Under the pieces are notes generated by a model. That model was not told where the DNA came from, did no database searches, and saw only the letters and a list, made by a program, of their open reading frames with translations. 64,000 nucleotides of DNA from Mermis nigrescens (lineage: Eukaryota > Nematoda > Enoplea > Mermithida > Mermithidae), in contig JAVLUZ010000154.1 in NCBI GenBank assembly GCA_036768485.1, positions 635,308 through 699,307 on the forward strand. The letters are read 5' to 3'. The translations under genes were made by a program, and so were the position numbers. This document shows positions 3,891 to 20,227 of the stretch, piece by piece (the first letter of the stretch is position 1; each line of letters starts with the position of its first letter).

Positions 3891-5622
3891 ATTCGTGTCC
3901 CTGACTCATAACCGGAGAAGCAGGCAGCAAAAACAAGACAGAAACGCATTTTAAACACCAAATTTTTCACTTAACACTCGCTAAATATTAATGTATAGAC
4001 AATTTGCTTTGACATGCACCCCATATAAAGCACTTTATAACTATTCTATTGGACTTATCCCGACTTCTGGACGGAAAAAGTGGCGAACAAAAAACGCTAC
4101 AAAAAACGTATTTTCCATCATTTAGAACCCTGTAAACTTTAAAATTCCGTACCGAACTCCACGTTGAGTTTAGAGAAATTTGCGTTTGGTACAATTTGTA
4201 GCTTTTAAATCGTAGTACATTCCTGTGTGCCAATATTCTCTTGCAAAAATTATTTGGTATGATTTATTAATCAAAATTCAGAAAAAACGTGTTTTTTCGC
4301 CCATTTTTTACCTCTGATTTCGAACTTTACACCCCCATAAATAACTCAATATTGCATTTTTTAAATGCGGTTTGCTGCGATATGTAGCCCCTGAAAGGCA
4401 CTTCATTACTGCTGTATTCAATTTACCCGGACTCAAAAGCGGAAAAATTTAGCAGAGAAATCTTAGTTAAAATCCGTTTTTTACACCATCCAGCTAGAGT
4501 GTAAACTTTAAAACCCAGGATCTAACTCACCATAGAGCGTAAAAGACTTTGCTTATATGCAGAATGTAGCCCTTGATCCTCTCTACATTTCTGTCAGAAA
4601 ACATTTTGAAGAACCTCATAATTGGAGTTAGTATCAGACATAGGCAGGTTGAAAACTCGACCAAAATGTGCTTTTTCACCCCAGATTTTCGCACTCTTTA
4701 CACTGCCGTTCGATAAATAATGCGAATTTCAACAAACAAACAAAGTGTCAATCTGTAGAATTCATCCCTTCCATCTATCCTAATCTGTGTCAATCTATTC
4801 GAGTCAGTCAATACTCGAGTTGTCCGCATGCCGTCAGTAAAAAGGCCTCCAAAAATGCGTCCTATGTTATAACGTTACACAAAAACTTTACACCTTCTTT
4901 ACACAGCCAGTTTTGAGTTTCAAGAAAAACAACAAAAACACGGGCAGCGAATTTTTTTATTATCTATCTTTTAAAAAAACCGCACCTTCCAGAAGTGTCC
5001 CGTTATAGCTGTAGGGGGGGTGCCCAGGTGTTGGGGGTACCCAAGTATATTATAGGTCAAGTGAAGGAGCAATCCTGCTGATTATTCGGTTTACTTCTAT
5101 TTATATTCACTTTGAATTTACGATTCAAATTTGCAGCTTTAAATCAGCAGTTACAGTTACATCGATTTGACCCGCATTGTTAGCTTACTACCTACAGTGA
5201 AATGCTTTTTTTAGAAGCTCGATACGTTATGCAATCTATACCTTACCTGCCTAGAGCCTGCTTAAAAATTCTTAAATTTTTTCAAAACCAACATTCATTC
5301 AAATTAAATGAAAAGAGCGCTATATTTTTCTAAGAATCCACTTAAATTTTATCGTTTTCAATGCAAGTCTCTGTTAATCAAACCTTACCTGTGGATAATC
5401 CATATCAAATGGTCGATGGGTCCCCTCCCACTCGACCATATCAGATTCTGATGAAATTTAATGTTTCAATTAAATTTAAATTAAATAATTAAATTTAATG
5501 TAATTAAATTGAATGTCGTCATATCCTTTAAATTTGTTTTAAATTTACCAACATCCCTCCTTTTTTATTTAAATTCTTTTTTCTTTTTCATTCTTTTTCG
5601 CCTCAACTCTAATCAGCATTAT
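3891..5622. other. Gene-free stretch with scattered GTGTAAA motifs
   Basis: More diverged sequence of the same GTGTAAA/TTTACAC character continues to about 4915, followed by AT-rich DNA up to the LTR. The ORFs here are short and of simple composition. No gene is supported. Positions 5619-5622 (TTAT) are the left copy of the retrotransposon target duplication. Confidence 0.6.
5619..5622. repeat. Target-site duplication TTAT, left copy
   Basis: TTAT directly precedes the TG of the left LTR and recurs at 20224-20227 directly after the CA of the right LTR. A 4-bp duplication fits Ty3/Gypsy-type integration. Confidence 0.85.
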
Positions 5623-6686
5623 TGTAAATGTAGACGGTTCGATCTGGGTCTACAGAATCGTCACAGATACGAACCATGCTAACATCCACCCTCGAGATTT
5701 ACCTAGGTACGTAGGTACTTAAGTCTACGCTTAGTGCTGGCCCCGATCGCGCGGCTCTAAGGCTTTCGATCTTTGGACCCTTACAGACCTTACGGCTTCG
5801 ATCCCCTCAGCCCTAATATTGCTGGCTGCTTCTATGTCGGGTGATCTCAGCAGCTACGCCCTAAGACCTAAGGCTACCTACCTAGTCTCGGTAATTGCCG
5901 CGGAGGTCAGTTGACCTATCTCAAGCTCAAGTTGTAATTTAACTTATTTTCAATCAGTGCCTGATCAGAAATGTTTTGGTTCCTAATTTGTGTAGCACGC
6001 TGAACTATGAAAACAACAACGACGAGCTCTATGCTGATCAATCATCCTTAAAGATTAGATAATAATTTTGATCAATTTTTGGCTTGAGAAATAAGTTATG
6101 ATTTTCGAATGGAGAAAACTATCATACGGAATTTACCTATCAGTCCACTAGAAGGTGGAAGTCCTCGACGTGGGGATGATGGCCGACCTAACCCTCGGTA
6201 TAACCGAAACCACTGGGTTGGTTTTCTATACTTTTATTCGACGAATAACGCACGGCCTATAGCCGGGAAACAAAATACGCAAAAGAAAAACGATAATGTA
6301 CAGTCGAATAAACCGGCCAACGAAAAAACCAAACAAGCCAGAAAAAACTAATACGACCTTCAGTACACTGGCCTCAAGGGCCATTACAGTAAATTAAAAC
6401 AACGATCAATTTAACATAATACTGAAATGACTTTTATCTCAGATCGAAAGTTCTCGATTCACGTAAGCGGTATGCATTAAACAATTACTATTATCATACA
6501 CTTAGCTCTATGCTACCGGACAAGTATCTAAATGTTTTTTATTATTGAAAATTTGGGAAAATAATGGGAAGACCGAAGGCATAGCCCACAGTACACTATC
6601 ATAGATAGCTACTAGTATTGGCTATGTTATGGCTATTGCGAACTGCTAAGGCAGGTTCGCCTAAACGTGTAACTCTCGCAGTTACA
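5623..6686 (-). repeat. LTR at the left end (3' LTR of the minus-strand element)
   Basis: Matches 19159-20223 almost perfectly over its whole length. It starts TGTAAATG and ends GTTACA on the plus strand, so both strands have TG..CA ends. The only differences I found are a one-base indel (CGAAAGTTC here, CGAATAGTTC in the other) and CACG versus CACA a few bases later. It contains an 80-codon ORF on the opposite strand (6109-6351). Confidence 0.95.
6109..6351 (+). CDS. 80-codon antisense ORF inside the left LTR
   Basis: An ATG-to-stop ORF on the strand opposite to gag-pol, identical in both LTRs (see 19645-19887). The product is basic and polar, with proline/glycine/arginine near residues 15-30 (PLEGGSPRRGDDGRPNPR) and a lysine/asparagine/glutamine-rich tail. 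I do not recognise it. It may be a chance ORF, since LTR regulatory DNA is GC-richer and stop-poor here. Identity of the two copies follows from recent insertion and is not evidence of selection. Confidence 0.3.
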   Translation: MEKTIIRNLPISPLEGGSPRRGDDGRPNPRYNRNHWVGFLYFYSTNNARPIAGKQNTQKKNDNVQSNKPANEKTKQARKN

Positions 6687-6695
6687 CTCCCCCAC
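6687..6695 (-). promoter_or_regulatory. Polypurine tract (plus-strand primer)
   Basis: On the minus strand the sequence immediately before the 3' LTR reads GTGGGGGAG, then TGTAA of the LTR. A purine run touching the 3' LTR is the expected plus-strand priming site and confirms the minus orientation. A run of T on the same strand lies just upstream (6699-6708). Confidence 0.8.
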
Positions 6696-7476
<781 letters not shown>

Positions 7477-10400
7477 TTAATATTCGTCGCGGTACTTGGC
7501 CTTCGAGCCATACGATTTTCCGCGACGTCGTTGTCGTTGAAAATATTCCTGATCCGATTCCGGTTCGCGACGCGTATTCGAACGCTCGCGATACTGATAT
7601 GGCGATTGCCTACGCCCGTACAGATGTTGGCGTAAGCGGCGATGTGGATCGACGGGTCGATCGTCGTCCTCAAAATCGTCGTCGTCCTCGTAGTCGTCCG
7701 CGTAACGACGCGGTATGGGTGGCGTCGGAGTAAATAATTGCTCCGGCGTAAAACCGTAAGTTCGTTGTCGGGAAGGTTCGCGTGGACGCTGTTGTTGTTG
7801 CGTAACAGGCCACGGTTTTGGCAAAAGTGGACCCGGTCGAGGTTGTGGCTGATAACCCCCGGTGGCTGGTTGACTTTGCTCCAACGGTGATTGATACTGG
7901 TCCCATTGTTGACGTTGACGGGATTGCGACCGGCCCCGATGAGTTCCGCGGTTCGACTGTGGCGGACGGCGATATTCATAAGGCTGCTGCTGTCGCGAGC
8001 GCGACAGATGACCAGCATCGGCCTGAGAATACGCCTCGGAACGCTCACGCGATTCCGTGAATTGCTGCTGTTGCCGCGGTTGGGTCTGCGGTCTTGTGTA
8101 TTGCTGTACATGCGGTTTTACTTGTGTCTGTTGCTGTGCTTGTGATTGTGAACGATGGTGCGTTTGCGCATAGCGCTGCCGGGATGACTGCGGGTCTTGC
8201 CGCCTCGATCCCCTTTGGCCTAAACGCGCTTTTAACTTAGCTGCAACTTCAGCTTGAACGAGTCTTCTTACTCGTTGTTTTTCCAAATTCTTCAACCGAC
8301 GCAAAGTGTGCTCGGATTTAGTATCGTAAAAACGATTCAATTTTGCCTTGTGTTCGTCTTCTGGCATGTGACAAACTTCTGACGTCTCAGCAAGAGAACC
8401 GGCGGCGCGTAACTTCGTCGCACGCCGTGGCATTTCCGTAGCCAAATTCTCACGATCACGCTGCTCGATCGTCATGCGTGTTCGACGCATCGCAATTTGT
8501 GCTTCCAAGGAAAGATCGACTTCGGGCATATCAAGGCTCGCTGCGGATCCGCTTGGGTCCTGCGAGGATGCCTGTCGCCTTTCTTTACAAATTTTTTCCA
8601 ATTCGTCTCGTATTCGATGTTTGAGGTAAAATACAGATTTTTGACGACCTCGAAAACGATCGAACTGAGCCGGAACTTCAAGTGCCGGGTCGGTAGCTAA
8701 CCGAATTTGCCTAATCATGTTGTGTAAAACATGAGGACTTTTGATTCGTGCTGTTAAGTCCGGGAATTCCGGAAAAGCCTCACGTGGAGATGGCGTGTAA
8801 GATTCGCCAAGGAACGCTACGCGTAACATGCGACGCAGCTGTTCCGTCATACGCCAACCTATTCCGGCATTGCCATAGGCGTATGCGAAATAGTGGAATT
8901 TTCTATCCAGAAATTCCAAAAGCGCTGTAGCGCGCATGACGTCTATTGAAGAAAAGACCGTCATGTGTCGATACTCCGATTCATATAAAGACTGAAATTC
9001 TCGGAAAGTATCGAAAATATCGACCATCTGGCGTGTCGGTATTAGAATTGGCGCTAGATGATCCGGCGCTGGTGACATTCGATGCGGATATAAATCCGGA
9101 GAAATTTGATGTGTCACGCCGTCGATCACTTTGCTTGGTGCGTCAAGATGTGGGTGTACGACCAAATACTCGAGCGGAACCTCGTACAACATCATTCCGG
9201 TTGTGATAAAAAACCGAATGCGCACGAAGTATTGGTCGGGATAAAATAATCGATTAAATACGCTCATATCGCTGATGAACCTAGGTGCGGGCTCACGATC
9301 GGCATCAGCCAAAGGCTGTGCGAGCGTAGACCACACTAAAGGGCGCGAGGGCGAATCAGTCGAATTCGCGTACTGCAAATGGATTGCGTACACTCGATCG
9401 AAGTACACTTGAGCAGCTTCGACCAACTGATCGTACAAACGCGATCCTGCGACTTCACCCAAATAGGAACGTAAATCGTGCAGAACGACTGGCGCGATAA
9501 TGCACGGTGGTTCGCGCGTCATATTTTCCATCATTGTGAAAAAATGCTGTACGTAGCGCGAGCGATTTTGAATTCTAGCGCTATCATTCGCGGCCATTTG
9601 GTCGCGAATAGCTTGCACGTGCGCAGGTATTGCGACTTCCATATTTGATGGTTGGCTTTGCGTAGCCTGTGATTGCAAATTTGCCACGGTACTAGACACA
9701 CCCGTCATGGCCATAGGAGCCGTGAAACGAGTATCCGGTGCCGTCGTACCTTGTGACACGGGCTGAGTCGTTACTTGCGTGTATAATGCTACATGAGGTA
9801 CTTCGTGTGCGGCTAATGTACGTTGCGGTTGTGGCGGAAAACCGATAATGTCAGTCATGATGACATCTGGGTCAGCCTGCTGCTCTGCCCCGACCGGCTG
9901 AAGAGTCGGCAAAGGTCCGAGTGCACTGATACCCAAGGGAGCTTGTTGAACCGCCGCAAGCGATTGCGAGACAATCGGTTGCGAAACGGTAACAATCCCT
10001 TTTCGAGCCATTGCTCCGCGTGTTACGCGCGGTGGCGACACGTTAGCCTGTGTTTCCGCCTCGGTGTCAGATAACGCCATAACTAAACGTTTGGGAGATA
10101 AATCATCGTCTTCAGTGGAGATCGATGGTTCTACACCCAGCATAGGCGAATCGTATGGAATATCGGTTTGCGAAGAAAACACAGAAGCTGGTGTACTCGT
10201 ACTGGTTGGTTTTGACTTAGGTTCCGTGTCAGGCGCATTTACCGGGCCCGAAACTGTGTCGGCAACGGTTTGCGAAGCCTGCACTTGTAAGTCAGGATTG
10301 TCAAACACGTTAGCGTGAGCCAACGCTTCCGTTACTGAGGCAATGGTGGTGGCTGCCGCTATAGCTACTTGTTGTTGCGGAGCCGGGCAATAAAAATCCT

Positions 10401-11625
10401 CAGCTAAGATTAACTCTTCGCCATTTGAATCAACTTCAGCTTCAACAGCTGCGCTGGTCGACTGCCCTTGTGGTGGCTTGCTAGTCGACAATGGTATGCG
10501 TACTTTGGCTTTCGGACCACTAGCCTTAATGTACAACTCATCGCCTACGAAAGAAACCGACATGGGCTTTCTATCGTCAGTAATGCGATTATCCTGCGAG
10601 CACCCTTCTATCAATATGAAAACATCGATAGTTATGAGGGCGTCCATCGCTAGATAATGCTGCATGTCCCGAGTTAAGGGTAAGCTCCACGCCTGTCCGA
10701 AGTTTCCAGGCGCGTTCGGATCAATATACATGTCGAAAAAGAATTCTGCCAAGCGCTTTAACGAATGCGATTGCGCTTTAATGCGTAAACGACGAGTAAA
10801 TGTTCTCGCCAACGGCTGAATGTCGATGAAATTTGCAATAAATGGGTCTTTCCAGTGCAGTTTATTGCGAATTTCTGCATCCGGAATTGCAACAATTTCC
10901 TCGAATGTTGGCCCGTAGACATGGAAATACGCAAGTCGATCTTGCGTCGGGTCATAACACACCATATACACGTTAGGTAAGCGTGTTTCGAGCAACTGGT
11001 GAAGCCCGAACGGAGGTTGCGGAAACTTCGCTAGATCCCAACAGAACACATGGCCAGTCGCGCTCGCAACTTGGACGTAGCGTACGAATGGGCCATGGAG
11101 GTCCTGGTAAGTGGGACATAGTTGCTGAAAACGCAGGTCCCAGGTCTTATAATGCCTGCCCTTTCTGTCATTCACAAATTCAGAGTCGTAGCCTAAAAAT
11201 AAAGTGCCATTAGTCATATTCGATGGCTGAATTAACGCCAAAATGGCGCCAAACGACGTCTGGTCGTCGGAGACTAAGACGGTGGGTAAAAGCCTATTCT
11301 TTGGTACGCGAGGGGTTACCAAAGGACTTCTACCAAGCCGATTCTCCCACCAGAGTTGTTGATCATTTATGCGCTTTCTGTGATTTGCGATTTTATGTGT
11401 TGCTTTATGCTTTACCCATTTTGCGGTAAGTGATTCGAGACCGCCAACACGGCGATTATCGTGTTGCGGCAGCGGGTTGGGTACGACCAATCCCCGCTCT
11501 AAAGCCATACTGGTCAACGCCGAACGAAACTCATCTAGGGACGCGGGAACACGTCCCTCGAATTTGCATCGGCGACCAGCTGCTTCCAACAATGCCTCCT
11601 TGCTGGGGGTACCTTGTGCAGCCAT
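7477..11625 (-). CDS. Retrotransposon ORF3: DEDDy 3'-5' exonuclease domain plus long low-complexity tail
   Basis: 1382 codons, third ORF of the element, in the position where retroviruses have env. Residues about 140-345 resemble the RNase D/WRN type of DEDDy exonuclease. Motif I is GYDSEF (D147, E149). A motif II candidate is D229 in YDPTQDRLAYF. FIDIQPLA then SLKRLAEFFFD match the region before motif III in the family. Motif III is HYLAMDA (Y324, D328, the Y-x3-D of DEDDy). By family knowledge such domains remove nucleotides from 3' ends of DNA or RNA with two metal ions. Residues about 350-640 are Pro/Ser/Thr/Gln-rich. Residues about 660-1000 form an unrecognised, globular-looking segment, and the C-terminus is very rich in Arg, Gln, Ser and Tyr with an acidic patch. 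No signal peptide or membrane segment is visible, so it is not an envelope. The ATG (ACCCATGG) overlaps the end of pol by 91 nt in the -1 frame. Confidence 0.85.
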   Translation of the reverse strand: MAAQGTPSKEALLEAAGRRCKFEGRVPASLDEFRSALTSMALERGLVVPNPLPQHDNRRVGGLESLTAKWVKHKATHKIANHRKRINDQQLWWENRLGRSPLVTPRVPKNRLLPTVLVSDDQTSFGAILALIQPSNMTNGTLFLGYDSEFVNDRKGRHYKTWDLRFQQLCPTYQDLHGPFVRYVQVASATGHVFCWDLAKFPQPPFGLHQLLETRLPNVYMVCYDPTQDRLAYFHVYGPTFEEIVAIPDAEIRNKLHWKDPFIANFIDIQPLARTFTRRLRIKAQSHSLKRLAEFFFDMYIDPNAPGNFGQAWSLPLTRDMQHYLAMDALITIDVFILIEGCSQDNRITDDRKPMSVSFVGDELYIKASGPKAKVRIPLSTSKPPQGQSTSAAVEAEVDSNGEELILAEDFYCPAPQQQVAIAAATTIASVTEALAHANVFDNPDLQVQASQTVADTVSGPVNAPDTEPKSKPTSTSTPASVFSSQTDIPYDSPMLGVEPSISTEDDDLSPKRLVMALSDTEAETQANVSPPRVTRGAMARKGIVTVSQPIVSQSLAAVQQAPLGISALGPLPTLQPVGAEQQADPDVIMTDIIGFPPQPQRTLAAHEVPHVALYTQVTTQPVSQGTTAPDTRFTAPMAMTGVSSTVANLQSQATQSQPSNMEVAIPAHVQAIRDQMAANDSARIQNRSRYVQHFFTMMENMTREPPCIIAPVVLHDLRSYLGEVAGSRLYDQLVEAAQVYFDRVYAIHLQYANSTDSPSRPLVWSTLAQPLADADREPAPRFISDMSVFNRLFYPDQYFVRIRFFITTGMMLYEVPLEYLVVHPHLDAPSKVIDGVTHQISPDLYPHRMSPAPDHLAPILIPTRQMVDIFDTFREFQSLYESEYRHMTVFSSIDVMRATALLEFLDRKFHYFAYAYGNAGIGWRMTEQLRRMLRVAFLGESYTPSPREAFPEFPDLTARIKSPHVLHNMIRQIRLATDPALEVPAQFDRFRGRQKSVFYLKHRIRDELEKICKERRQASSQDPSGSAASLDMPEVDLSLEAQIAMRRTRMTIEQRDRENLATEMPRRATKLRAAGSLAETSEVCHMPEDEHKAKLNRFYDTKSEHTLRRLKNLEKQRVRRLVQAEVAAKLKARLGQRGSRRQDPQSSRQRYAQTHHRSQSQAQQQTQVKPHVQQYTRPQTQPRQQQQFTESRERSEAYSQADAGHLSRSRQQQPYEYRRPPQSNRGTHRGRSQSRQRQQWDQYQSPLEQSQPATGGYQPQPRPGPLLPKPWPVTQQQQRPREPSRQRTYGFTPEQLFTPTPPIPRRYADDYEDDDDFEDDDRPVDPHRRLRQHLYGRRQSPYQYRERSNTRREPESDQEYFQRQRRRGKSYGSKAKYRDEY

Positions 11626-14600
11626 GGGTCTGCAAAAGGAAAAACATTAGATAATGGTACGGCATGTGCTGTTTTAGAACCATTTAATAAACGTACAGGC
11701 GCGCAGTCCTTAGCTTTTTGTTCCCTGCCCGGTAAATCCTCAAAACTTATGACAACTGCCGGGGCAAGAGGGCGATGTGGTAACTTTACCAACACAAAAT
11801 CGCCAGGGACATACGCGTGTTTTTCCACAATTAAGTCAGAATAAGGTAATTTAGGTTCAGGCAAAAGTCTATTCCTGTGAACGTGATGAATAATAAGAGG
11901 GTTATAGACATATGCAATTTTCGCAGTTTCAGGCGTAGGTAAGTCAATAATCCGATAGGGACCAACACGCTTGGGTGATAGTTTACCGATTTCAGGTTGA
12001 ATGACTGAAGTATTATTGAGGTAGACTATATCCGAGAGATTAAAATTTGTGTGCGTTACGGCTTTGTCATATTGCGATTTTTGCTGCTTACGCGCTTGAG
12101 ATAAATTTTGAGACGCGATTTCATGCAGATCCTGCAAAGTCAGCTTTAAATCAATGACGTATTTTTCCGCAACAGATGGTAAATTCGGATTTATCACGAA
12201 GTCATTTATGAGTAAAGTGTCAAGAGGAAATGCTGGTTCGCGACCATAAAGCATTTCAAAAGGAGATATATTAGTTGATGATTGTGGAGTCGCGCGGTAT
12301 GCAAATAATGCGAAGGGTAAAAATTGTTCCCAATCATACTGTGATCGCGCACTCAGCTTAGACAAACCATCAATCAATGTACGATTATAACGTTCCACCA
12401 ACCCATCACACTGGGGGTGATATGGGGTTGTAAATATTTTTTGAACGTTTAATAGTTTACAAACTTCCGAAATTAGGGTAGATGTAAAATTTGACCCCTG
12501 ATCTGTCAAAAATTTCTTGGGGACTCCATAACGTGGTATAATTTCTCTTAGTAATAGATTCGCAATAGTTGTTGCTTTTATATCAGAAACAGCAAAAGCT
12601 TCCACGTATTTTGTAAAATAATCCATAAAAACTACAATTTGGTCATTTCCGGAGGGAGATCGCGGCATATGCAAACAATCGCACGCAATGAGTTCAAAGG
12701 GCGCGGATACTTCGATTGGTTGCAACGGAACGGATGTGGAATTTAATGCGACCTTACGTTGTAAGCACACATCACAATTCCTACACCACGCGATTACATC
12801 ATTTTCCATACGCGGCCACCAATAACGCATTTGTATGGCGGGCAAGATTTTGCGCGATGAAAAATGAGCTCCGAAAATAGAGTCATGAAATTCCGTTAAT
12901 ATGAAGCGACGCAAAGATTTGGGTATGACGATTTGATGAACGACAGTTGGTGAACGCTTAGGTTGAAAACGACAAAAAAGTACATCGTTTACGAGAAAAA
13001 ATTCGTCACGATATTTTTTCGTTGTTAAGTCATTCAATGCGATACGAATTTTATGCAATTCGTCATCTGCACGTTGCTCAGCGAGTAAACGCGCAGGTGT
13101 TAGCATTTCAGCTTTTTCTGCATCGGTAAGTAACAAGCGTTCGCGAAATGTAGGTGGTTTAGAATTAATAGGATCGGTTTGCGCAGTAGGATTATTATTT
13201 TGTGCGTTTGGATGATTAATTGGCGCAGTAGGGGTATTATCGCACGATCGTTCAGGTGGAACCGATTCGTCATCTGACTCAGAATCTTCGGATTCTAAAT
13301 TTGCGATGTTAACGATATTTTTGCGCTCTACTTTATATTTGCGTTCTGCATGATCATATTTAGGATGACGTGAAAGAAGATCAGCTGCGCAGTTATATGC
13401 ACCAGGAACGTAAACGATATCATATTCGTATTCCTGTAATTTGAGACCCCAACGGCGTAAACGACTCGATGGGTCTTTAACATTTACTAGCCAGGTTAAC
13501 GCTTGATGATCCGTTTCGACAATGAATTTTTTACCGTAAAGATAATGTCGATAATGCTTGATGGCCCACACTACCGCTAGCGCTTCTTTTTCTGAAGTAG
13601 CATAATTACATTCAGCAGAATTTAGCACGCGACTAGCGTAGCTAAGAATAAAGCGACTTTTGGATGGTAAATGCTTTTGCGTCAAAATAGCACCTAACGC
13701 ATAGTTACTTGCGTCAGTTGTTAAAATAAATTGGTGCTCATGATCGAATTTTGGTAATTGCAAAATAGGTGGAGATGTAAATGCTTTCTTCAGAAGCTCA
13801 AAAGCGGTTTGGTGCTCAGCCTTCCAGCAAAATTCGACATCTTTACGTAGAAGATGGAATAGCGGTTTAGCGATTTTAGCGAGATCTTTAACGAATTTCT
13901 TAAACCATTGGACTAAGCCAAGAAATTTCTGCACGGATTTAACGGTTTTTGGTACGGGAAACGAGATTAAATCTGCGACTTTAGACATATCGGGAGCGAT
14001 GCCCATTGCACTGATGCTGTGGCCAAGAAATTTTACCTCTGCATGCGCGAGATGGCATTTATCAGGCTTGACACGTAAGTTTGCCTTTTTAAGAGCAATG
14101 AAGACATTTTCGAGATCTTTTAAATGTTCTTCGAAAGTACGTGAAAAAATAATTATGTCATCGATGTAAACGAGACAAGATTTCCAATTTAGACCTGCGA
14201 GCACAAGCTCCATTAGTCTTTGAAAATCTGCGGGCGCATTCTTTAAACCAAAAGGTAAAACTTCAAATTCGTAATGACCAACAGGACATATAAATGCTGT
14301 TTTTTCGCGAGATTTATTATCGAGTGGAATTTGCCAATATCCAGATTTCAAATCTAGTGTGCTAAAATATGCAGCACTGCCTAAAGTATCAAAATAATCG
14401 TCTAATTGTGGAAGAGGGTAAACTTGCGTTTTAGTAACGTCATTTAACCGTCGATAATCGACGACTGGCCTAAGGGAACCGTCCTTTTTCCCAATGAGAA
14501 ATAATGGACTTGCCCATGGGCTAGTTGTAGGTCGAATAATTTTATCCGCAAGCATTTCATTTATAATTTTCTGCATAGATTCTCTTCTAGAATGCTCAAC

Positions 14601-16355
14601 ACGGTAAGTTTTTCCAACAACGGGTGGATTATCCCCTGTGTCAATATGATGTTTCATCAAGGGGGTACGACCGAGAGGTTCATTTTTTAATGCAAAAATT
14701 GAGTCGTATTTTAAGCAAAGTTCACGAATTTGTTGCTGCTGTCTAGAATTAACGGCGGAGCCGTTTAAAGCTTTATTTATTGATGCAAAAAGTTCTGGTG
14801 TCCTATCATCAAAGGATGAAACATGTGACACGACTTCGGCATCAGTGGTTAAAGAACCTATTATTTCACCAGAGTCAATGCGAATTGGTGCTTTAGAGAT
14901 GTTACAGACGCGAACAGGTATTAGAGGTTGTGAAGCATCGACTATAGACGGAGCAACAAAAAGTGAAGTTTTTTCCATAAAATCGGGATTAGGTTCGAAT
15001 AATGCGAAATCAAAAGTGCAAGAACCGTGACTTATATAGCCAGGTGTAATTAGTTCATGCCTAGGTTGTATAATAACAGGCTCAGGTAACGAAACATGCA
15101 CACACACAACACCAGAGGTAGTTGCGTTGGGTTTTGCGCGAAATTGCAATTTTTCGTGAGATGAAAGTAAATTAACCTTTATGCCGTTTATAAAAGCACA
15201 ACGCTCAATAGGATTAACCCACATGAGTGCGGATTCGCAAAAATCATATCCTAAGAGCATGTCTTCCGGCAAGTGATCAATTATAGCTACTGAGGTAGAA
15301 ATAGATTGTTCCGCGATTGTTAAAGTCATATTTACTTTATAGCGAACGACTGCGGTGATTTCGCCTACACCATGCACGACTTGTGAAACTTGCTTAGGTG
15401 GTAAATTAAAACCAAGACGTAAGAATGCTGATGTGGTCATCATGGTGACCTGTGAACCTGTGTCTATCAGAGCAGGTACGTCAACGCCATGAACTTTAAC
15501 GAGAATAGTGGGTAAATTTGTCCCAGCATGACTTACGATAGGAATATTAGGATCGAAAATCTTAGATGGAGGTAGATTAATTTTTTCGTAAGTTGCAAGA
15601 CGACGTTGTAGACGTTCGTACTCTTCAAGAAATTCTTGCGACGCGAAGAAATTAGGACGCGCGCTAGATTCTTGGTCTTTCGCAGTAACCGTGTTCACAT
15701 CACGAGGAGATGTAAGGGTTGGCTGCGGTGGGGGCACATTCATGGCGGGTTGGTTGTCTGCAGTGTATGTGACATACGGGCGATTGAAATTATTATCGCT
15801 GCGATAACTAGAGTTATAGTATGTGCCACGTTGTTCATTAGGAAATTGCACAAAAGGTGTATTTTGGCGCGATTGGTTATTATAACGATTATCGTAATGC
15901 GAATTTTGATAATTAGCACGCGAATTTTGGTAATGATCATTACGATTTTGCCAAAAATTCGATCGTGATTGCTTTGCTTCAAAGCGATTATCATTATTCG
16001 CATAGTTAGATGAACGATGTTGACTAGAATTACGATAGCGTGATTGAGAACGATGCCTATTCTGCGAATTCGAACGCGATGGCGAACGATTTTGTCGCAA
16101 AAAAGAACGCGATTGGCTGCGATTGCGCGCCATAGAATTAGTATTCCGATCAGCTTGATTATTAAAATTAGCATTATTAGACGTTTCTTGCCTTTGACGC
16201 GTGAAGCATTCCTCATAAATGTGACCTATGCGCTTGCAAAAGGTACAATATTTACGAGAAGAATTTTCTGGTTTCTCAGCACGCGATGAGCGATGAAACG
16301 TTCGATGACGTGAACGATTTGGATCATTTTGGTTAGATGCGCTGAGGAGTATCTT
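11535..16355 (-). CDS. pol: Retrotransposon pol: nucleocapsid knuckle, protease, RT, RNase H, integrase
   Basis: The frame is open from just after a TAA at 16356-16358; its first ATG is at 16133. Upstream of that ATG lies a CCHC zinc knuckle (C-x2-C-x4-H-x4-C, about 16206-16247), so translation probably enters from gag. Counting from the ATG at 16133: aspartic protease DTGS at residues 224-227; reverse transcriptase with LPFGLKNAP and YIDD at 656-659; RNase H acidic residues D807, E850, D875; integrase zinc finger with H1083, H1090, C1120, C1123; catalytic D1152, D1211 and E1247 (D-x35-E); then a GPY-type segment (RVGPYRII). This order defines Ty3/Gypsy. The catalytic motifs are intact. The frame is -1 relative to gag and overlaps it by about 130 nt. 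I see no canonical slippery heptamer. Confidence 0.95.
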   Translation of the reverse strand, partial: KILLSASNQNDPNRSRHRTFHRSSRAEKPENSSRKYCTFCKRIGHIYEECFTRQRQETSNNANFNNQADRNTNSMARNRSQSRSFLRQNRSPSRSNSQNRHRSQSRYRNSSQHRSSNYANNDNRFEAKQSRSNFWQNRNDHYQNSRANYQNSHYDNRYNNQSRQNTPFVQFPNEQRGTYYNSSYRSDNNFNRPYVTYTADNQPAMNVPPPQPTLTSPRDVNTVTAKDQESSARPNFFASQEFLEEYERLQRRLATYEKINLPPSKIFDPNIPIVSHAGTNLPTILVKVHGVDVPALIDTGSQVTMMTTSAFLRLGFNLPPKQVSQVVHGVGEITAVVRYKVNMTLTIAEQSISTSVAIIDHLPEDMLLGYDFCESALMWVNPIERCAFINGIKVNLLSSHEKLQFRAKPNATTSGVVCVHVSLPEPVIIQPRHELITPGYISHGSCTFDFALFEPNPDFMEKTSLFVAPSIVDASQPLIPVRVCNISKAPIRIDSGEIIGSLTTDAEVVSHVSSFDDRTPELFASINKALNGSAVNSRQQQQIRELCLKYDSIFALKNEPLGRTPLMKHHIDTGDNPPVVGKTYRVEHSRRESMQKIINEMLADKIIRPTTSPWASPLFLIGKKDGSLRPVVDYRRLNDVTKTQVYPLPQLDDYFDTLGSAAYFSTLDLKSGYWQIPLDNKSREKTAFICPVGHYEFEVLPFGLKNAPADFQRLMELVLAGLNWKSCLVYIDDIIIFSRTFEEHLKDLENVFIALKKANLRVKPDKCHLAHAEVKFLGHSISAMGIAPDMSKVADLISFPVPKTVKSVQKFLGLVQWFKKFVKDLAKIAKPLFHLLRKDVEFCWKAEHQTAFELLKKAFTSPPILQLPKFDHEHQFILTTDASNYALGAILTQKHLPSKSRFILSYASRVLNSAECNYATSEKEALAVVWAIKHYRHYLYGKKFIVETDHQALTWLVNVKDPSSRLRRWGLKLQEYEYDIVYVPGAYNCAADLLSRHPKYDHAERKYKVERKNIVNIANLESEDSESDDESVPPERSCDNTPTAPINHPNAQNNNPTAQTDPINSKPPTFRERLLLTDAEKAEMLTPARLLAEQRADDELHKIRIALNDLTTKKYRDEFFLVNDVLFCRFQPKRSPTVVHQIVIPKSLRRFILTEFHDSIFGAHFSSRKILPAIQMRYWWPRMENDVIAWCRNCDVCLQRKVALNSTSVPLQPIEVSAPFELIACDCLHMPRSPSGNDQIVVFMDYFTKYVEAFAVSDIKATTIANLLLREIIPRYGVPKKFLTDQGSNFTSTLISEVCKLLNVQKIFTTPYHPQCDGLVERYNRTLIDGLSKLSARSQYDWEQFLPFALFAYRATPQSSTNISPFEMLYGREPAFPLDTLLINDFVINPNLPSVAEKYVIDLKLTLQDLHEIASQNLSQARKQQKSQYDKAVTHTNFNLSDIVYLNNTSVIQPEIGKLSPKRVGPYRIIDLPTPETAKIAYVYNPLIIHHVHRNRLLPEPKLPYSDLIVEKHAYVPGDFVLVKLPHRPLAPAVVISFEDLPGREQKAKDCAPVRLLNGSKTAHAVPLSNVFPFADPWLHKVPPARRHCWKQLVADANSRDVFPRP

Positions 16356-17161
16356 TTAGGTACTACGCTGCCTACTGGAGCAGCTGTTACCAATACGTAA
16401 GGCGTTACTGCCTTTTTATCCTCAAATTCTTTATTAGCAAATTCAGCGCTAAGCGCATTGTCCAAAAATTCAGCTAATGATGCCCTAGGTTTTTTATGAT
16501 ATGCCTCTTTCGAAATGTGTGGTAATAAACCTTGTTTTAGTTGATGTCGCATTAAATTATTGAAATGTGGCGAGTCAACTTCAAGATAGGGATCCGATTT
16601 AATTAACTCTTCGCGAAGCGAGAGATAATAAGCTTTAACCGATTCGTTAGGCTGCTGTTTGTGTGACAAAAAACGATTAAAGAGCGCACCGGTGTCCATA
16701 GGACAAAATTCGGTTATTAGCGCATGTTTCATTTTCGAATAAGATTGTTGTATATCAGCAGGTAACGAATGGTATAGACGCAAAACATAAGGGTCAAGAA
16801 ATCCAGTAGCGAATTTTAAACGATCAGCCTTGTCAATATCATAGGTATTGGCAAGCGATTCAAATTCTGCAAAATAAGCCTTTATATCCGATTTATCGCC
16901 GTCAAAAAATTTTTTATTTGCAATTGCAAATTGCATCTGCTGCAAAAATGGTCCGCGATTCAAGGAATCAGCGAGACGTGAATCACCACGCGAGCTTTCA
17001 GATGAAGAACCTGAACTATGCCTATGACGTCGTCTGCGCGATCGAGATTTGCGACGCGAGCGACGACTGCGCTGGGCGATCATAACTATTAGATGAGCTG
17101 TCGTCAGAAAATTTGACATGTTTTTTCCTACTGGACGATTCAGATTGAGGAGCAGCTTCAT
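16226..17161 (-). CDS. gag: Retrotransposon gag, main part (capsid region)
   Basis: A 311-codon frame. After an Arg/Ser-rich stretch (residues about 30-60) comes a retrotransposon-gag-like capsid region from about residue 68 (QMQFAIANKKFFDGDK; AYFAEFESLANTYDI; LPADIQQSYSKMKHALITEF; NESVKAYYLSLREELI). It packages the RNA and forms the particle. The last ~30 codons run out of frame with the zinc knuckle, which is read in the -1 (pol) frame. The annotated ATG is probably not the true start. Immediately upstream, coding-like sequence is in another frame until about 17075, and the first gag frame (17462-18580) has the same phase as this one. So this is the C-terminal half of a gag that is interrupted in this copy or expressed unusually. 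Confidence 0.8.
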   Translation of the reverse strand: MKLLLNLNRPVGKNMSNFLTTAHLIVMIAQRSRRSRRKSRSRRRRHRHSSGSSSESSRGDSRLADSLNRGPFLQQMQFAIANKKFFDGDKSDIKAYFAEFESLANTYDIDKADRLKFATGFLDPYVLRLYHSLPADIQQSYSKMKHALITEFCPMDTGALFNRFLSHKQQPNESVKAYYLSLREELIKSDPYLEVDSPHFNNLMRHQLKQGLLPHISKEAYHKKPRASLAEFLDNALSAEFANKEFEDKKAVTPYVLVTAAPVGSVVPKRYSSAHLTKMIQIVHVIERFIAHRVLRNQKILLVNIVPFASA

Positions 17162-17461
17162 TTTGCAAATTTGCAGATTCGTTATTAATACCAGATAAAT
17201 TTATCTCAACCGTTGCATTTCGATATTAGAAGAATGCAAGATAGGATTATTAGGTGGTATTTCCACTAATATATACAGCTGCACAATCCGCAAGACAGCT
17301 CAGTCCGAGTTGGTGACTATACAATGAACAAAGGTCAGCCCGGGTTAAGTATATATTTATTGAGAAATTATATTACTTTGAATACGGGGCTCGACAGACG
17401 TACAATACGCGGAGTAACCCATGTTAAAGTGAATATATTACTATGATTATTGTATTAACCA
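17162..17461 (-). other. Frame-broken segment inside gag
   Basis: 300 nt separating two gag frames of identical phase. On the minus strand, 17279-17479 (201 nt, starting inside the end of the first gag frame) is AT-rich, has stops and an AATAAA motif, and is bounded by GT (at 17479) and CAG (ending 17279). The positions are phase 0 on both sides, so it could be an intron or a small insertion. The next ~60 nt are open in the gag phase. Then about 17075-17220 reads as coding-like sequence only in the -1 frame (polar, Ser/Asn/Glu-rich) before the phase returns. Two compensating indels, programmed shifting or assembly errors would all look like this. Confidence 0.5.
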
Positions 17462-18580
17462 CTACCGGGCGTGACACACGTTTATAGGGTTAGGTACATA
17501 ATTATTGGGTAAGATTTCTCCTTGAGGTGGAAAATACTGCAGCGGTGGTGGATTTAGTTGCTGCTGCGAGTTCGCAATAGAAGGATTAGGTACGAAGGAA
17601 GGGGCATTACGATTTAATGGCAGCGAAGGCCGAGATCGCGACGTCTGCGAAATCGATACCGACGGCTGCGAAATCGTAGGTATATTCTCCGAAAAACCCG
17701 AGTTTTGCACTGATTGCAAACCCGTGTTTACAGGATTCTGTGACAAATTACAGATTTCCGGCGCGCGGTGCGTACAACTTTGAGAGATATTTTCTGGAAC
17801 AGTTTCCGAAGGTGAGCGTGAATTCGATGCTCTGTTGCTAGTAGACAACAGTGAAGATGCCCTATGCGTACTTTGCGCACGATTTGCACTTTGCGCATTG
17901 AATTCAGAAAAATTTGCACTATCGATTGAGTGGTTAACGCGCTCAGATACATTAGTTTCTATGCGATTCAGAACTGGTTGGGGTTTAAGCATAGTGCTTA
18001 GCTCCAAACGCAGTTTACGCATTTCATCCGCATTTTCCTTTTTATCTTGATCAACGCGCGTAGAAAGATCCGAAAATTGCAAATGAATAGCTTGTAGCGC
18101 TTTCAAAATAAGATCATTAGTCACATTAGCATTAGCACGCTCTCTGTCGGCATTCATGCAGCGACTATGATTACTTTCTACGTCAGAATCGTGATTTTCG
18201 CGTTCCGAACTGGTTTCAGGGTTATTTGCCGTGTTAATGGTAGTCGTATTATCGATCATTGTGTGACTTGATGAATTGTCAATATTAGGATCCGACCTAG
18301 TTAGCGAAGATTGATTAATGCGAGATCGCATGGTACTCAATGATAATTCGTCTTCGGACTGTGTATTACTCGCGGCATGTAGTGACGCGGGTAATTTATC
18401 ATTATTCGCCTTAGTCGTTACGTCTCTCGTAATTGTGTCATTACTCGCAGAATTACACGCGCTATTAGAGTCAACAGGCGCAGTAGGTAATTGGCGAGCT
18501 GAAACAGGTGGCGTAGAAGGTTTTTTCAATTTAGCGGGCGGTGTCCGCAAAACCTTTTTCCTGCCATTTTTAGGTGTCAA
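17462..18580 (-). CDS. Retrotransposon 5' ORF, probably N-terminal gag extension
   Basis: 372 codons, first long ORF after the leader. The N-terminus is Lys/Pro-rich (residues 1-35), followed by a Ser/Asn/Thr-rich low-complexity stretch to about 150. A predicted coiled coil lies at about 153-198 (LILKALQAIHLQFSDLSTRV, then charged heptads). A long Ser/Asn/Gln/Pro-rich region follows. I recognise no domain. Phase is the same as the capsid ORF downstream (17161-16226), which suggests one ancestral reading frame, with the coiled coil perhaps helping particle assembly. That role is inference. Confidence 0.65.
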   Translation of the reverse strand: MTPKNGRKKVLRTPPAKLKKPSTPPVSARQLPTAPVDSNSACNSASNDTITRDVTTKANNDKLPASLHAASNTQSEDELSLSTMRSRINQSSLTRSDPNIDNSSSHTMIDNTTTINTANNPETSSERENHDSDVESNHSRCMNADRERANANVTNDLILKALQAIHLQFSDLSTRVDQDKKENADEMRKLRLELSTMLKPQPVLNRIETNVSERVNHSIDSANFSEFNAQSANRAQSTHRASSLLSTSNRASNSRSPSETVPENISQSCTHRAPEICNLSQNPVNTGLQSVQNSGFSENIPTISQPSVSISQTSRSRPSLPLNRNAPSFVPNPSIANSQQQLNPPPLQYFPPQGEILPNNYVPNPINVCHAR

Positions 18581-19144
18581 AAATGTCGAGAAATGTGCCT
18601 TTGGGTAAAATAAATTTCAGTACGTCGGAATTTTTTCCCAAAATAAATGTTTCGAATTAGACCTTTGTCGATCCGAAAAACAGGTTTTTCCACGTAAATA
18701 GTACTTCCTTACGTGAAGTAAGATATACCTGACGTGAAATGATCGAAAGCAGATAGGACTAAGCCTAAAGCGCAAGAACGTGTACGTGGTTAGAAAAACA
18801 GTTAGGTAAGAACCTAAATGACGGAATTTCGTCGTCAGTTGAGAAGAATGATAAATCGTCGCCTGAGGGCTGACGTTTATAGAAAAATGAATATACGAGC
18901 GTGAGAGCTGCCTTCGTCGGTAGAGATCCGACGGAAATAGAAAAATAACGATGGCTTTACCACGATACACAAAATCTTTACCACGGACGCTTACTTAAAT
19001 TGCGCACTGCCACGATCGCGGTCGATACAACAACAAAGGTGAACGAAACGTTACACATTTTTAGATGGCCAAAATGATAATTTTTTGGATCGAAAAATAA
19101 TTTTACGATGATTGATCAGCTCGGCTGTAGCTAGCAGCCTAAAG
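18581..19144 (-). other. Retrotransposon 5' leader
   Basis: About 560 nt between the primer-binding-site candidate and the first gag ATG, where packaging signals would be expected. A 117-codon minus-strand ORF (18617-18970) is present but shows no recognisable family and is probably chance. Confidence 0.55.
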
Positions 19145-19158
19145 GAGGGAACATCCAA
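19145..19158 (-). promoter_or_regulatory. Primer-binding-site candidate
   Basis: On the minus strand the 5' LTR ends ..TTTACA and is followed by T then TGGATGTTCCCTCC. TGG complementary to a tRNA 3' CCA immediately after the LTR is the standard PBS arrangement. I cannot assign the tRNA with confidence from the sequence alone. Confidence 0.65.
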
Positions 19159-20223
19159 TGTAAATGTAGACGGTTCGATCTGGGTCTACAGAATCGTCAC
19201 AGATACGAACCATGCTAACATCCACCCTCGAGATTTACCTAGGTACGTAGGTACTTAAGTCTACGCTTAGTGCTGGCCCCGATCGCGCGGCTCTAAGGCT
19301 TTCGATCTTTGGACCCTTACAGACCTTACGGCTTCGATCCCCTCAGCCCTAATATTGCTGGCTGCTTCTATGTCGGGTGATCTCAGCAGCTACGCCCTAA
19401 GACCTAAGGCTACCTACCTAGTCTCGGTAATTGCCGCGGAGGTCAGTTGACCTATCTCAAGCTCAAGTTGTAATTTAACTTATTTTCAATCAGTGCCTGA
19501 TCAGAAATGTTTTGGTTCCTAATTTGTGTAGCACGCTGAACTATGAAAACAACAACGACGAGCTCTATGCTGATCAATCATCCTTAAAGATTAGATAATA
19601 ATTTTGATCAATTTTTGGCTTGAGAAATAAGTTATGATTTTCGAATGGAGAAAACTATCATACGGAATTTACCTATCAGTCCACTAGAAGGTGGAAGTCC
19701 TCGACGTGGGGATGATGGCCGACCTAACCCTCGGTATAACCGAAACCACTGGGTTGGTTTTCTATACTTTTATTCGACGAATAACGCACGGCCTATAGCC
19801 GGGAAACAAAATACGCAAAAGAAAAACGATAATGTACAGTCGAATAAACCGGCCAACGAAAAAACCAAACAAGCCAGAAAAAACTAATACGACCTTCAGT
19901 ACACTGGCCTCAAGGGCCATTACAGTAAATTAAAACAACGATCAATTTAACATAATACTGAAATGACTTTTATCTCAGATCGAATAGTTCTCGATTCACA
20001 TAAGCGGTATGCATTAAACAATTACTATTATCATACACTTAGCTCTATGCTACCGGACAAGTATCTAAATGTTTTTTATTATTGAAAATTTGGGAAAATA
20101 ATGGGAAGACCGAAGGCATAGCCCACAGTACACTATCATAGATAGCTACTAGTATTGGCTATGTTATGGCTATTGCGAACTGCTAAGGCAGGTTCGCCTA
20201 AACGTGTAACTCTCGCAGTTACA
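19159..20223 (-). repeat. LTR at the right end (5' LTR of the minus-strand element)
   Basis: 1065 bp, near-identical partner of 5623-6686, TG..CA ends, followed by TTAT (20224-20227). As the 5' LTR it should contain the promoter for the minus-strand genomic transcript. I did not find a promoter motif I would defend. Confidence 0.95.
19645..19887 (+). CDS. 80-codon antisense ORF inside the right LTR
   Basis: Identical in predicted product to 6109-6351, and antisense to gag-pol. See that entry. If transcribed, it would need an antisense promoter within the LTR or internal region; none was identified. Confidence 0.3.
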   Translation: MEKTIIRNLPISPLEGGSPRRGDDGRPNPRYNRNHWVGFLYFYSTNNARPIAGKQNTQKKNDNVQSNKPANEKTKQARKN

Positions 20224-20227
20224 TTAT
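20224..20227. repeat. Target-site duplication TTAT, right copy
   Basis: Matches 5619-5622 and marks the integration site of the LTR element. Confidence 0.85.

What the first reader, a model, noticed from the sequence alone, without database searches (positions are those of the whole stretch)
7477..11625. DEDDy 3'-5' exonuclease as ORF3 of a Ty3/Gypsy retrotransposon
The third ORF, in the env position, carries D147-x-E149, a motif II Asp candidate (D229) and Y324-x3-D328, in RNase D/WRN-like sequence context (SLKRLAEFFFD upstream of motif III). All catalytic residues are present in a recently inserted copy. To my knowledge captured DEDDy exonucleases have been reported in other retroelements (giant rotifer telomeric elements of the Athena/Terminon type), but not as a standard part of Ty3/Gypsy. 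It might trim cDNA or primer ends, proofread, or act against host RNA; the role is inference.
Basis: partly seen in the sequence, partly recalled or inferred. Interest (0 to 1): 0.88.

Follow-up and report, generated by a model that had tools for sequence, protein, structure and literature searches.

The report
Retrotransposon carrying its own exonuclease gene
A young jumping gene (a Ty3/Gypsy retrotransposon), probably in an insect-parasitic worm, carries an extra gene for what looks like an enzyme that trims nucleic acids from their ends, and related jumping genes in the same genome carry it too; such genes were known before from retrotransposons of bdelloid rotifers.

Summary
The minus strand carries a Ty3/Gypsy element (5623-20223; LTRs 99.8% identical; TTAT duplication) with a 1382-aa ORF3 (7477-11625) in the env position. 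ORF3 alone matches the DEDDy exonuclease family weakly (PF01612 E 0.077; domain alone 0.0072; both below the cut-off). Relatives settle it: a 13-row alignment (window, 11 other genome copies, one metagenome fragment) hits WRN exonuclease at E 1.9e-13, and D147, E149, D229, Y324, D328 fall on motifs I-III. Twenty of 20 copies compared keep all five. The domain's dN/dS is 0.026, lowest of five ORF3 regions and similar to the neighbouring integrase end. A splice-acceptor-like sequence lies 4 nt before the ATG in 20 of 20. Two kinds of Gypsy backbone carry such ORFs: PWWP-tailed integrase (weakly so in the window), and one with a viral-glycoprotein domain before protease. DEDDy ORF3s of LTR retrotransposons were published from bdelloid rotifers in 2017, so the kind is known. 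What looks new: the host (probably the nematode Mermis nigrescens), these backbones, the long ORF3 and the measured selection.

The parts
5619..5622 (.). target-site duplication TTAT, left
   Evidence: flanks printed
20224..20227 (.). target-site duplication TTAT, right
   Evidence: flanks printed
19159..20223 (-). 5' LTR, 1065 bp, TG..CA
   Evidence: BLASTN of the two LTRs 99.8%, ends
5623..6686 (-). 3' LTR, 1064 bp
19144..19157 (-). candidate primer binding site (TGG... one base after the 5' LTR); tRNA not identified
   Evidence: sequence; inference
6687..6695 (-). purine-rich GTGGGGGAG before the 3' LTR, candidate polypurine tract
   Evidence: sequence; inference
17462..18580 (-). 372-aa open frame upstream of gag, no Pfam match at E<=0.05
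16226..17161 (-). gag (Retrotrans_gag PF03732 E 6.6e-6)
11535..16133 (-). pol, protease-RT-RNase H-integrase; the open frame runs upstream of the ATG and there holds a CCHC zinc knuckle (by eye)
   Evidence: Pfam; frame; RT closest to Ty3 RT 4ol8 E 2.3e-96
11631..11804 (-). PWWP-like tail of integrase, weak here (E 0.034, below cut-off)
   Evidence: strong in L030 and L036
11630..11646 (-). splice-acceptor-like TGTTTTTCCTTTTGCAG ending 4 nt before the ORF3 ATG
   Evidence: GCAG/ACCCATGG in 20 of 20 copies
7477..11625 (-). ORF3, 1382 aa
   Evidence: 34 scored places including the window, 92-100% identical
10591..11250 (-). DEDDy exonuclease domain, ORF3 residues 126-345
11179..11187 (-). motif I, D147-S-E149
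10939..10941 (-). motif II, D229
10642..10656 (-). motif III, Y324-x3-D328
7480..8595 (-). C-terminal Q/R/S-rich part of ORF3, residues 1011-1382 (by eye)
   Evidence: sequence; no Pfam match

Best explanation
ORF3 is a DEDDy 3'-5' exonuclease that the retrotransposon keeps as an accessory enzyme in the place where retroviruses keep env, most likely as a separate product of a spliced (cis or SL trans-spliced) mRNA. Shown here: homology, intact catalytic motifs, position, conservation in many copies, purifying selection similar to that on the integrase end, a conserved splice-acceptor-like sequence. Inferred: that it is catalytically active, that it is made from a spliced message (fusion to pol by a frameshift in the overlap is not excluded for this element), that the Q/R/S-rich C-terminus holds it on RNA or on the element's ribonucleoprotein, and that it works on RNA 3' ends. 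My leading guess for the substrate is RNA facing the host (small silencing RNAs, or 3' ends of element and host transcripts), about 0.45; trimming or proofreading of cDNA and primer ends about 0.3; the rest open.
For: Profile homology: 13 of 13 rows of A6 match PF01612 at E<=0.1; WRN 1.9e-13, Egalitarian 2.5e-11, EXD2 1.4e-8, mut-7 homolog 2.1e-7. Motifs: all five residues in 20 of 20 copies and, in A6, motif I D 13/13 and E 12/13, motif II D 13/13, motif III Y and D 12/12. Selection: exo dN/dS 0.026 against 0.11-0.21 for the other four ORF3 regions; 8 cluster representatives 0.034 (95% bootstrap 0.015-0.061); on 10 copies with open integrase end 0.023 for exo and 0.040 for that end. Stops in 7 of 20 copies, none inside residues 126-345. 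Acceptor-like sequence 20 of 20. ORFs with the domain follow an integrase end in 7 of 9 other element loci read and in L035; in L023, L030, L034 and L036 a gap of about 100-460 nt separates the two frames, which rules out fusion there (coordinates).
Against: No fold prediction or activity was obtained. ORF3 on its own does not reach the Pfam cut-off. Two copies of one other family have damaged motif I (L030 E to K, L034 D to Y). Egalitarian, the best PDB match of the window's own subfamily, is recalled to use this fold mainly for RNA binding. The splice donor and any transcript were not found. In bdelloids the authors saw no departure from neutrality for env- and GDSL-type ORF3s; DEDDy ORFs were not in that test.
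Confidence: 0.8

Rival explanations
1. The domain is a DEDD-fold RNA-binding module that no longer cuts, as recalled for Egalitarian or EXD1, tethering element RNA for transport or packaging.
For: Egalitarian is the best PDB match of the window's own subfamily profile (E 9.3e-5); the long Q/R/S-rich C-terminus fits RNA binding.
Against: All five catalytic residues kept in 20 of 20 copies and in nearly every row of the diverged alignment; the exo domain is the most constrained part.
Confidence: 0.12
2. The exonuclease acts inside the particle on cDNA or primer 3' ends (proofreading, removal of extra 3' nucleotides before integration).
For: WRN exonuclease, best match of the 13-row profile, acts on DNA 3' ends (recalled); selection is similar to that on the integrase end.
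Against: If made from a separate message, packaging needs an extra step; DEDDy ORFs also occur in Penelope-type elements (PMC5408684), which prime differently (recalled).
Confidence: 0.25
3. ORF3's domain is a chance weak match, or a captured gene carried passively.
For: Single-sequence matches are weak or absent.
Against: dN/dS 0.026 across copies; related ORFs in several other families; profile matches.
Confidence: 0.03

Closest known systems
DEDDy ORF3 of bdelloid rotifer LTR retrotransposons (Juno1/2, Vesta2/5; Rodriguez, Kenefick, Arkhipova 2017, PMC5408684, parts 1-3 of 5 read)
   Same: DEDDy exonuclease as ORF3 downstream of PR-RT-RH-INT; young LTR copies; more than one LTR lineage carries it; ORF3s there are said to be expressed from spliced messages
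   Different: Different host (inferred); no dUTPase found in pol; catalytic set D-E-D-D rather than the DEED reported there; PWWP-type integrase tail; ORF3 1382 aa; purifying selection measured here. Their sequences were not at hand, so relatedness of the ORFs was not tested
Athena/Terminon Penelope-like elements of bdelloids
   Same: carry DEDDy exonuclease ORFs (papers)
   Different: not LTR elements (papers)
WRN, Egalitarian, EXD2, mut-7 exonuclease domains
   Same: profile match and motifs II-III aligned to WRN; motif I aligned to Egalitarian only weakly
   Different: cellular proteins; no tree was built to place the element domains among them
Burro, giant Gypsy-like elements of planarians (PMC6431247, passages)
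   Same: fusion-glycoprotein env in frame between gag and pol, as in the exonuclease-bearing element of L045
   Different: the passages read mention no DEDD exonuclease in Burro; the window's own element shows no env match

Membership tests
Ty3/Gypsy LTR retrotransposon | LTRs with TG..CA and short target-site duplication | tested here: met
Ty3/Gypsy LTR retrotransposon | domain order PR-RT-RNase H-integrase | tested here: met
Ty3/Gypsy LTR retrotransposon | RT closest to Ty3 among solved structures | tested here: met
   Ty3 RT 4ol8 E 2.3e-96; next kinds are an 'Enzymatic polyprotein' 8r0s 5.1e-65 and Pr125Pol 1.6e-32 (best 60 of 205 shown). No RT tree was built
DEDDy 3'-5' exonuclease (PF01612) | motif I DxE, motif II D, motif III Yx3D | tested here: met
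DEDDy 3'-5' exonuclease (PF01612) | score over the family's curated cut-off | tested here: not met
   window ORF3 13.2 bits, domain alone 16.6, cut-off 23.6. Seven of 7 exonuclease ORFs of other copies scanned pass it, but these were found by that same family search
DEDDy 3'-5' exonuclease (PF01612) | RNase H-like fold | not testable with these tools
DEDDy 3'-5' exonuclease (PF01612) | metal-dependent 3'-5' exonuclease activity | not testable with these tools
   needs a bench assay
bdelloid Juno/Vesta DEDDy LTR elements | dUTPase domain between PR and RT | tested here: not met
   no dUTPase match in pol at E<=1
bdelloid Juno/Vesta DEDDy LTR elements | DEED catalytic set | tested here: not met
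   D147, E149, D229, D328
bdelloid Juno/Vesta DEDDy LTR elements | sequence relationship of the ORF3s | not tested
   rotifer sequences not available; protein searches gave one metagenome fragment only
envelope gene | viral glycoprotein homology | tested here: not met
   no Pfam match other than PF01612 in ORF3 (E<=1, residues 386-1382). Transmembrane helices were not predicted

The most novel reading that the evidence does not exclude
A whole assemblage of nematode Gypsy elements, with and without an envelope glycoprotein, depends on an encoded exonuclease about as much as on integrase, and uses it as a counter-weapon against small-RNA silencing or host RNA decay: an enzyme class recruited by LTR and Penelope-type retroelements in two animal phyla because they face the same host defence.
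Probability: 0.22. Interest if true: 0.82.

Novelty: new variant of a known kind. Interest (0 to 1): 0.55.

Why it matters
It appears to take the DEDDy ORF3 out of the one animal group for which I found it described, and shows from copies in one genome that selection guards the domain about as closely as the integrase end. That makes the open question of what these exonucleases do testable: many copies without stops, more than one backbone, and clear predictions for message structure and substrate. It also warns that an ORF in the env position need not be an envelope.

Tried and rejected
Single-sequence searches of ORF3: none in 5.8 billion proteins at E<=1 (the 8000 candidates sharing most words were scored); in the PDB one irrelevant match, E 0.12. 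A viral-contig scan with A6 could not run. NCBIfam gave one weak match, L023 to a bifunctional exonuclease/DNA polymerase, E 0.016.

Integrase as yardstick: the first two attempts were spoilt by copies whose integrase end is frameshifted or replaced (7 of 20; they gave 0.141 and 0.525, which I do not use); redone on 10 copies with an open integrase end. Of 13 such copies I left out L006, L007 and L012, whose ORF3 is identical to that of L005 or L011.

Alignment A6 took one copy per family from what had been read: 7 of the 20 loci L021-L040, plus L049, L050, L051 and L053. L034 (motif I D to Y) was in A1 and A2 and is not in A6.

Env as ORF3: rejected, no glycoprotein match. Chance match: rejected. 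Host gene as close donor: two host-like loci score far lower with the A1 profile (L025 42.5 bits, L037 8.9) than element ORFs outside A1 (108-211 bits); exons split the host scores, and other host exonucleases may exist, so this only says that no donor was found.

Corrected on re-reading: a frameshift fusion of ORF3 to pol is not excluded for the window's element, so confidence went from 0.82 to 0.80; the in-frame gag-env link is seen in L045, not in L047.
Full report
What is there. On the minus strand the window holds a Ty3/Gypsy element, 5623-20223 (14,601 bp). The LTRs (1065 and 1064 bp) are 99.8% identical, have TG..CA ends and are flanked by TTAT on both sides. The order is a 372-aa open frame without Pfam match at E<=0.05, gag (PF03732, E 6.6e-6; [quoted passage not shown] The RT matches the Ty3 RT structure 4ol8 at E 2.3e-96. 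ORF3 is 1382 aa and overlaps the end of pol by 91 nt.

The exonuclease. ORF3 alone gives PF01612 at E 0.077 (13.2 bits, cut-off 23.6), its domain 0.0072: suggestive, not proof. The proof comes from the same genome. A search with PF01612 gave 90 matches; 20 were cut out as loci (L021-L040), and three of these (L021, L037, L025) look like pieces of spliced host genes. Ten loci were read in full: L025 and nine element loci. In seven of the nine an integrase end lies upstream of the exonuclease ORF (L023, L029, L030, L031, L033, L034, L036); for L035 it was seen in a further stretch; for L026 it was not looked at. L029 has a stop inside its exonuclease ORF. Seven of 7 such ORFs scanned pass the Pfam cut-off, as expected since that family search found them. 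A profile of eight of these domains, made without the window, aligns to ORF3 residues 127-340 (probability 97.3, E 1.9e-11); the window's subfamily (window, L051, L053) against it gives 99.5, E 1.7e-22. Plain BLASTP also links ORF3 to L053 (E 3e-54), L051 (1e-33) and L033 (2.5e-9). All 13 rows of A6 (window, 11 other genome copies, metagenome fragment P0001) match PF01612 at E<=0.1. A6 against the PDB gives WRN 1.9e-13, Egalitarian 2.5e-11, EXD2 1.4e-8, NrnC 4.1e-8, a mut-7 homolog 2.1e-7; much of that strength comes from the other families, for the window's three-member subfamily alone finds only Egalitarian (9.3e-5, 0.0022), with WRN at 0.36 behind unrelated p300 at 0.26.

Catalytic residues. 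The columns of motif II (D229) and motif III (Y324, D328) align with those of WRN; motif I lies outside the WRN alignment and aligns only weakly with Egalitarian (same call). In A6 motif I Asp is kept in 13 of 13 and Glu in 12 of 13 (L030 has Lys), motif II Asp in 13 of 13, motif III Tyr and Asp in 12 of 12, P0001 ending before it. L034, a relative of L030 left out of A6, has Tyr for the motif I Asp. All 20 copies of the window's own family compared, the window among them, keep all five residues.

Copies and selection. The genome search scored 34 of 3871 candidates, so numbers are floors; the 34, one being the window, are 92-100% identical to ORF3, 30 over its whole length, 20 without a stop. 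Copies without ORF3 were not looked for. L001-L020 were compared. dN/dS (Nei-Gojobori, own script) is 0.026 for residues 126-345, against 0.164, 0.209, 0.106 and 0.132 for N-terminus, linker, middle and C-terminus. With one representative for each of eight 2% clusters it is 0.034 (95% bootstrap 0.015-0.061) and the other four regions run from 0.108 to 0.219, the lowest of their lower bounds being 0.069. On ten copies whose integrase end is open, exo is 0.023 (0.006-0.045) and the integrase end 0.040 (0.019-0.066). Close pairs of copies show relatively more amino-acid changes over ORF3 (non-synonymous:synonymous 5:2, 5:8, 15:14, 12:21, 22:14 in five pairs), from near neutral to moderately constrained. 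This fits constraint over rounds of transposition followed by decay at rest, but pairs overlap and numbers are small. The integrase end is frameshifted or replaced in 7 of 20 copies, four of which (L004, L009, L014, L015) have ORF3 without a stop; I read that as decay under way.

How it may be expressed. TGTTTTTCCTTTTGCAG ends 4 nt before the ORF3 ATG; the GCAG/ACCCATGG part is present in 20 of 20 copies, L003 having one change in the pyrimidine tract. These copies are close relatives and the stretch is also pol coding sequence, so conservation alone does not prove splicing. The ORF3 frame is open for only 7 codons above the ATG, but pol stays open 91 nt into ORF3, so a frameshift fusion within that overlap is not excluded here. 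In L023, L030, L034 and L036 a gap of 457, 334, 349 and 104 nt between the frames excludes it (coordinates). An AG lies within about 25 nt of the chosen ATG in 8 of 9 other families, which is near what chance would give. No donor, spliced leader or transcript was identified.

How widespread. Two kinds of backbone carry the exonuclease. In one, the integrase ends in a PWWP domain (PF00855 E 9e-14 in L030, 1.5e-11 in L036; 0.034 in the window, below the cut-off). Of 149 PWWP matches at E<=1 (460 candidates, 150 scored), 33 have a PF01612 or ORF3 match within 3 kb downstream on the same strand; 28 of 90 PF01612 matches are so explained. This is a floor, since Pfam misses diverged copies: of the 116 unpaired places I picked five that looked different, and four of five carry an exonuclease ORF next to the PWWP place by the A1 profile (E 1.5e-34 or better, in a database of a few ORFs); one, L052, does not. 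The five were not drawn at random. In the other backbone an env-like glycoprotein domain (PF24664 Monjiviricetes_fusion) lies upstream of protease in the same frame: L045 (E 9.6e-18), where a single 2330-aa frame also holds the gag zinc knuckle, and L047 (E 1.3e-17), where gag is in another, overlapping frame and pol is broken. The exonuclease ORFs of L035 and L023 follow these. No RT tree was built, so the number of lineages and of captures is open.

Host. The genome held is 523,963,438 bases in 860 contigs. The Mermis nigrescens assembly is 524,220,005 bp in 867 scaffolds with 83.98% repeats (PMC10989877, passages). A COX1-bearing stretch reads as an invertebrate-type mitochondrial gene (code 5, by eye). 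I take the host to be this mermithid nematode; this is inference.

What is known. DEDDy ORF3s in LTR retrotransposons were reported for bdelloid rotifers, acquired at least twice and shared with Athena/Terminon elements; the authors suggested 3'-end processing and left activity open (PMC5408684, text parts 1-3 of 5). A 2019 article counts such a domain among well-known accessory domains of LTR transposons (PMC6338049, passage), and a review repeats the rotifer case (PMC5718144, passage). My paper searches for the same in nematodes and for PWWP integrases in Gypsy elements listed no paper whose title or abstract start describes it; most listed papers were not opened, and the library holds open-licence papers only. 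An env in frame between gag and pol is known from planarian Burro elements (PMC6431247, passages).

Mechanism. The anatomy: nuclease domain at residues 126-345, a variable linker, a moderately constrained middle (part of it weakly similar to L051, E 0.013), and a Q/R/S-rich end. I think ORF3 is an active 3'-5' exonuclease held on RNA or the ribonucleoprotein by that end. Whether it trims cDNA and primers, processes element RNA, or removes host small RNAs is open; that such ORFs occur in both LTR and Penelope-type elements, which differ in priming but share host silencing (recalled), tips me slightly to the host-facing role. That last step is inference.

Verdict. Real, conserved in many copies and under strong purifying selection; the kind is already published from rotifers; host and backbones look new. 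Interest 0.55.

Noticed in passing
L045 1030-8019 (-), L047 1267-5871 (+): Gypsy elements with a Monjiviricetes-type fusion glycoprotein domain (PF24664) upstream of protease in the same frame (in L045 also in frame with the gag zinc knuckle; in L047 gag is in another frame), followed by an exonuclease ORF (L035, L023): glycoprotein and exonuclease in one element.
   Followed up: partly
L030 3-974, L036 2-1135, weakly window 11631-11804; 149 genome places: Integrases that end in a PWWP domain (usually a histone-mark reader, recalled); a possible self-made counterpart of LEDGF targeting of lentiviral integrase.
   Followed up: partly
L046 3-1292 (-): 430-aa ORF beside the L035 element with a weak double-jelly-roll match (PF21738, E 0.018, below cut-off), perhaps a Maverick-like or adenovirus-like capsid.
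   Followed up: no
L005, L006, L007: Three copies at different places share an identical ORF3 with the same three TGA codons: duplicated sequence, help in trans, or assembly duplicates.
   Followed up: no
ORF3 of L001-L020: In 7 of 9 columns with a stop, the stop is TGA where other copies have CGA, a CpG site.
   Followed up: no
L052: A PWWP place followed by an ORF of at least 618 aa, rich in basic residues, of unknown kind instead of the exonuclease.
   Followed up: no
L025 1393-1875 (+): Host-like exonuclease exon that matches the element profile (E 4.4e-13) better than the other host-like gene does; possible relative or domesticated copy.
   Followed up: no
window 17462-18580 (-): 372-aa open frame upstream of gag with a TTG at its start in the ORF list, Ser/Asn/Pro-rich by eye; may be a 5' exon of gag.
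   Followed up: no
L041: Reading frames that look by eye like mitochondrial COX1, nad1, nad2 and nad4 inside a 48.8-Mb contig: nuclear copy of mitochondrial DNA or a misjoin.
   Followed up: no
window 20224-64000: No ORF of 180 aa or more lies wholly in the rest of the window to the right of the element.
   Followed up: no
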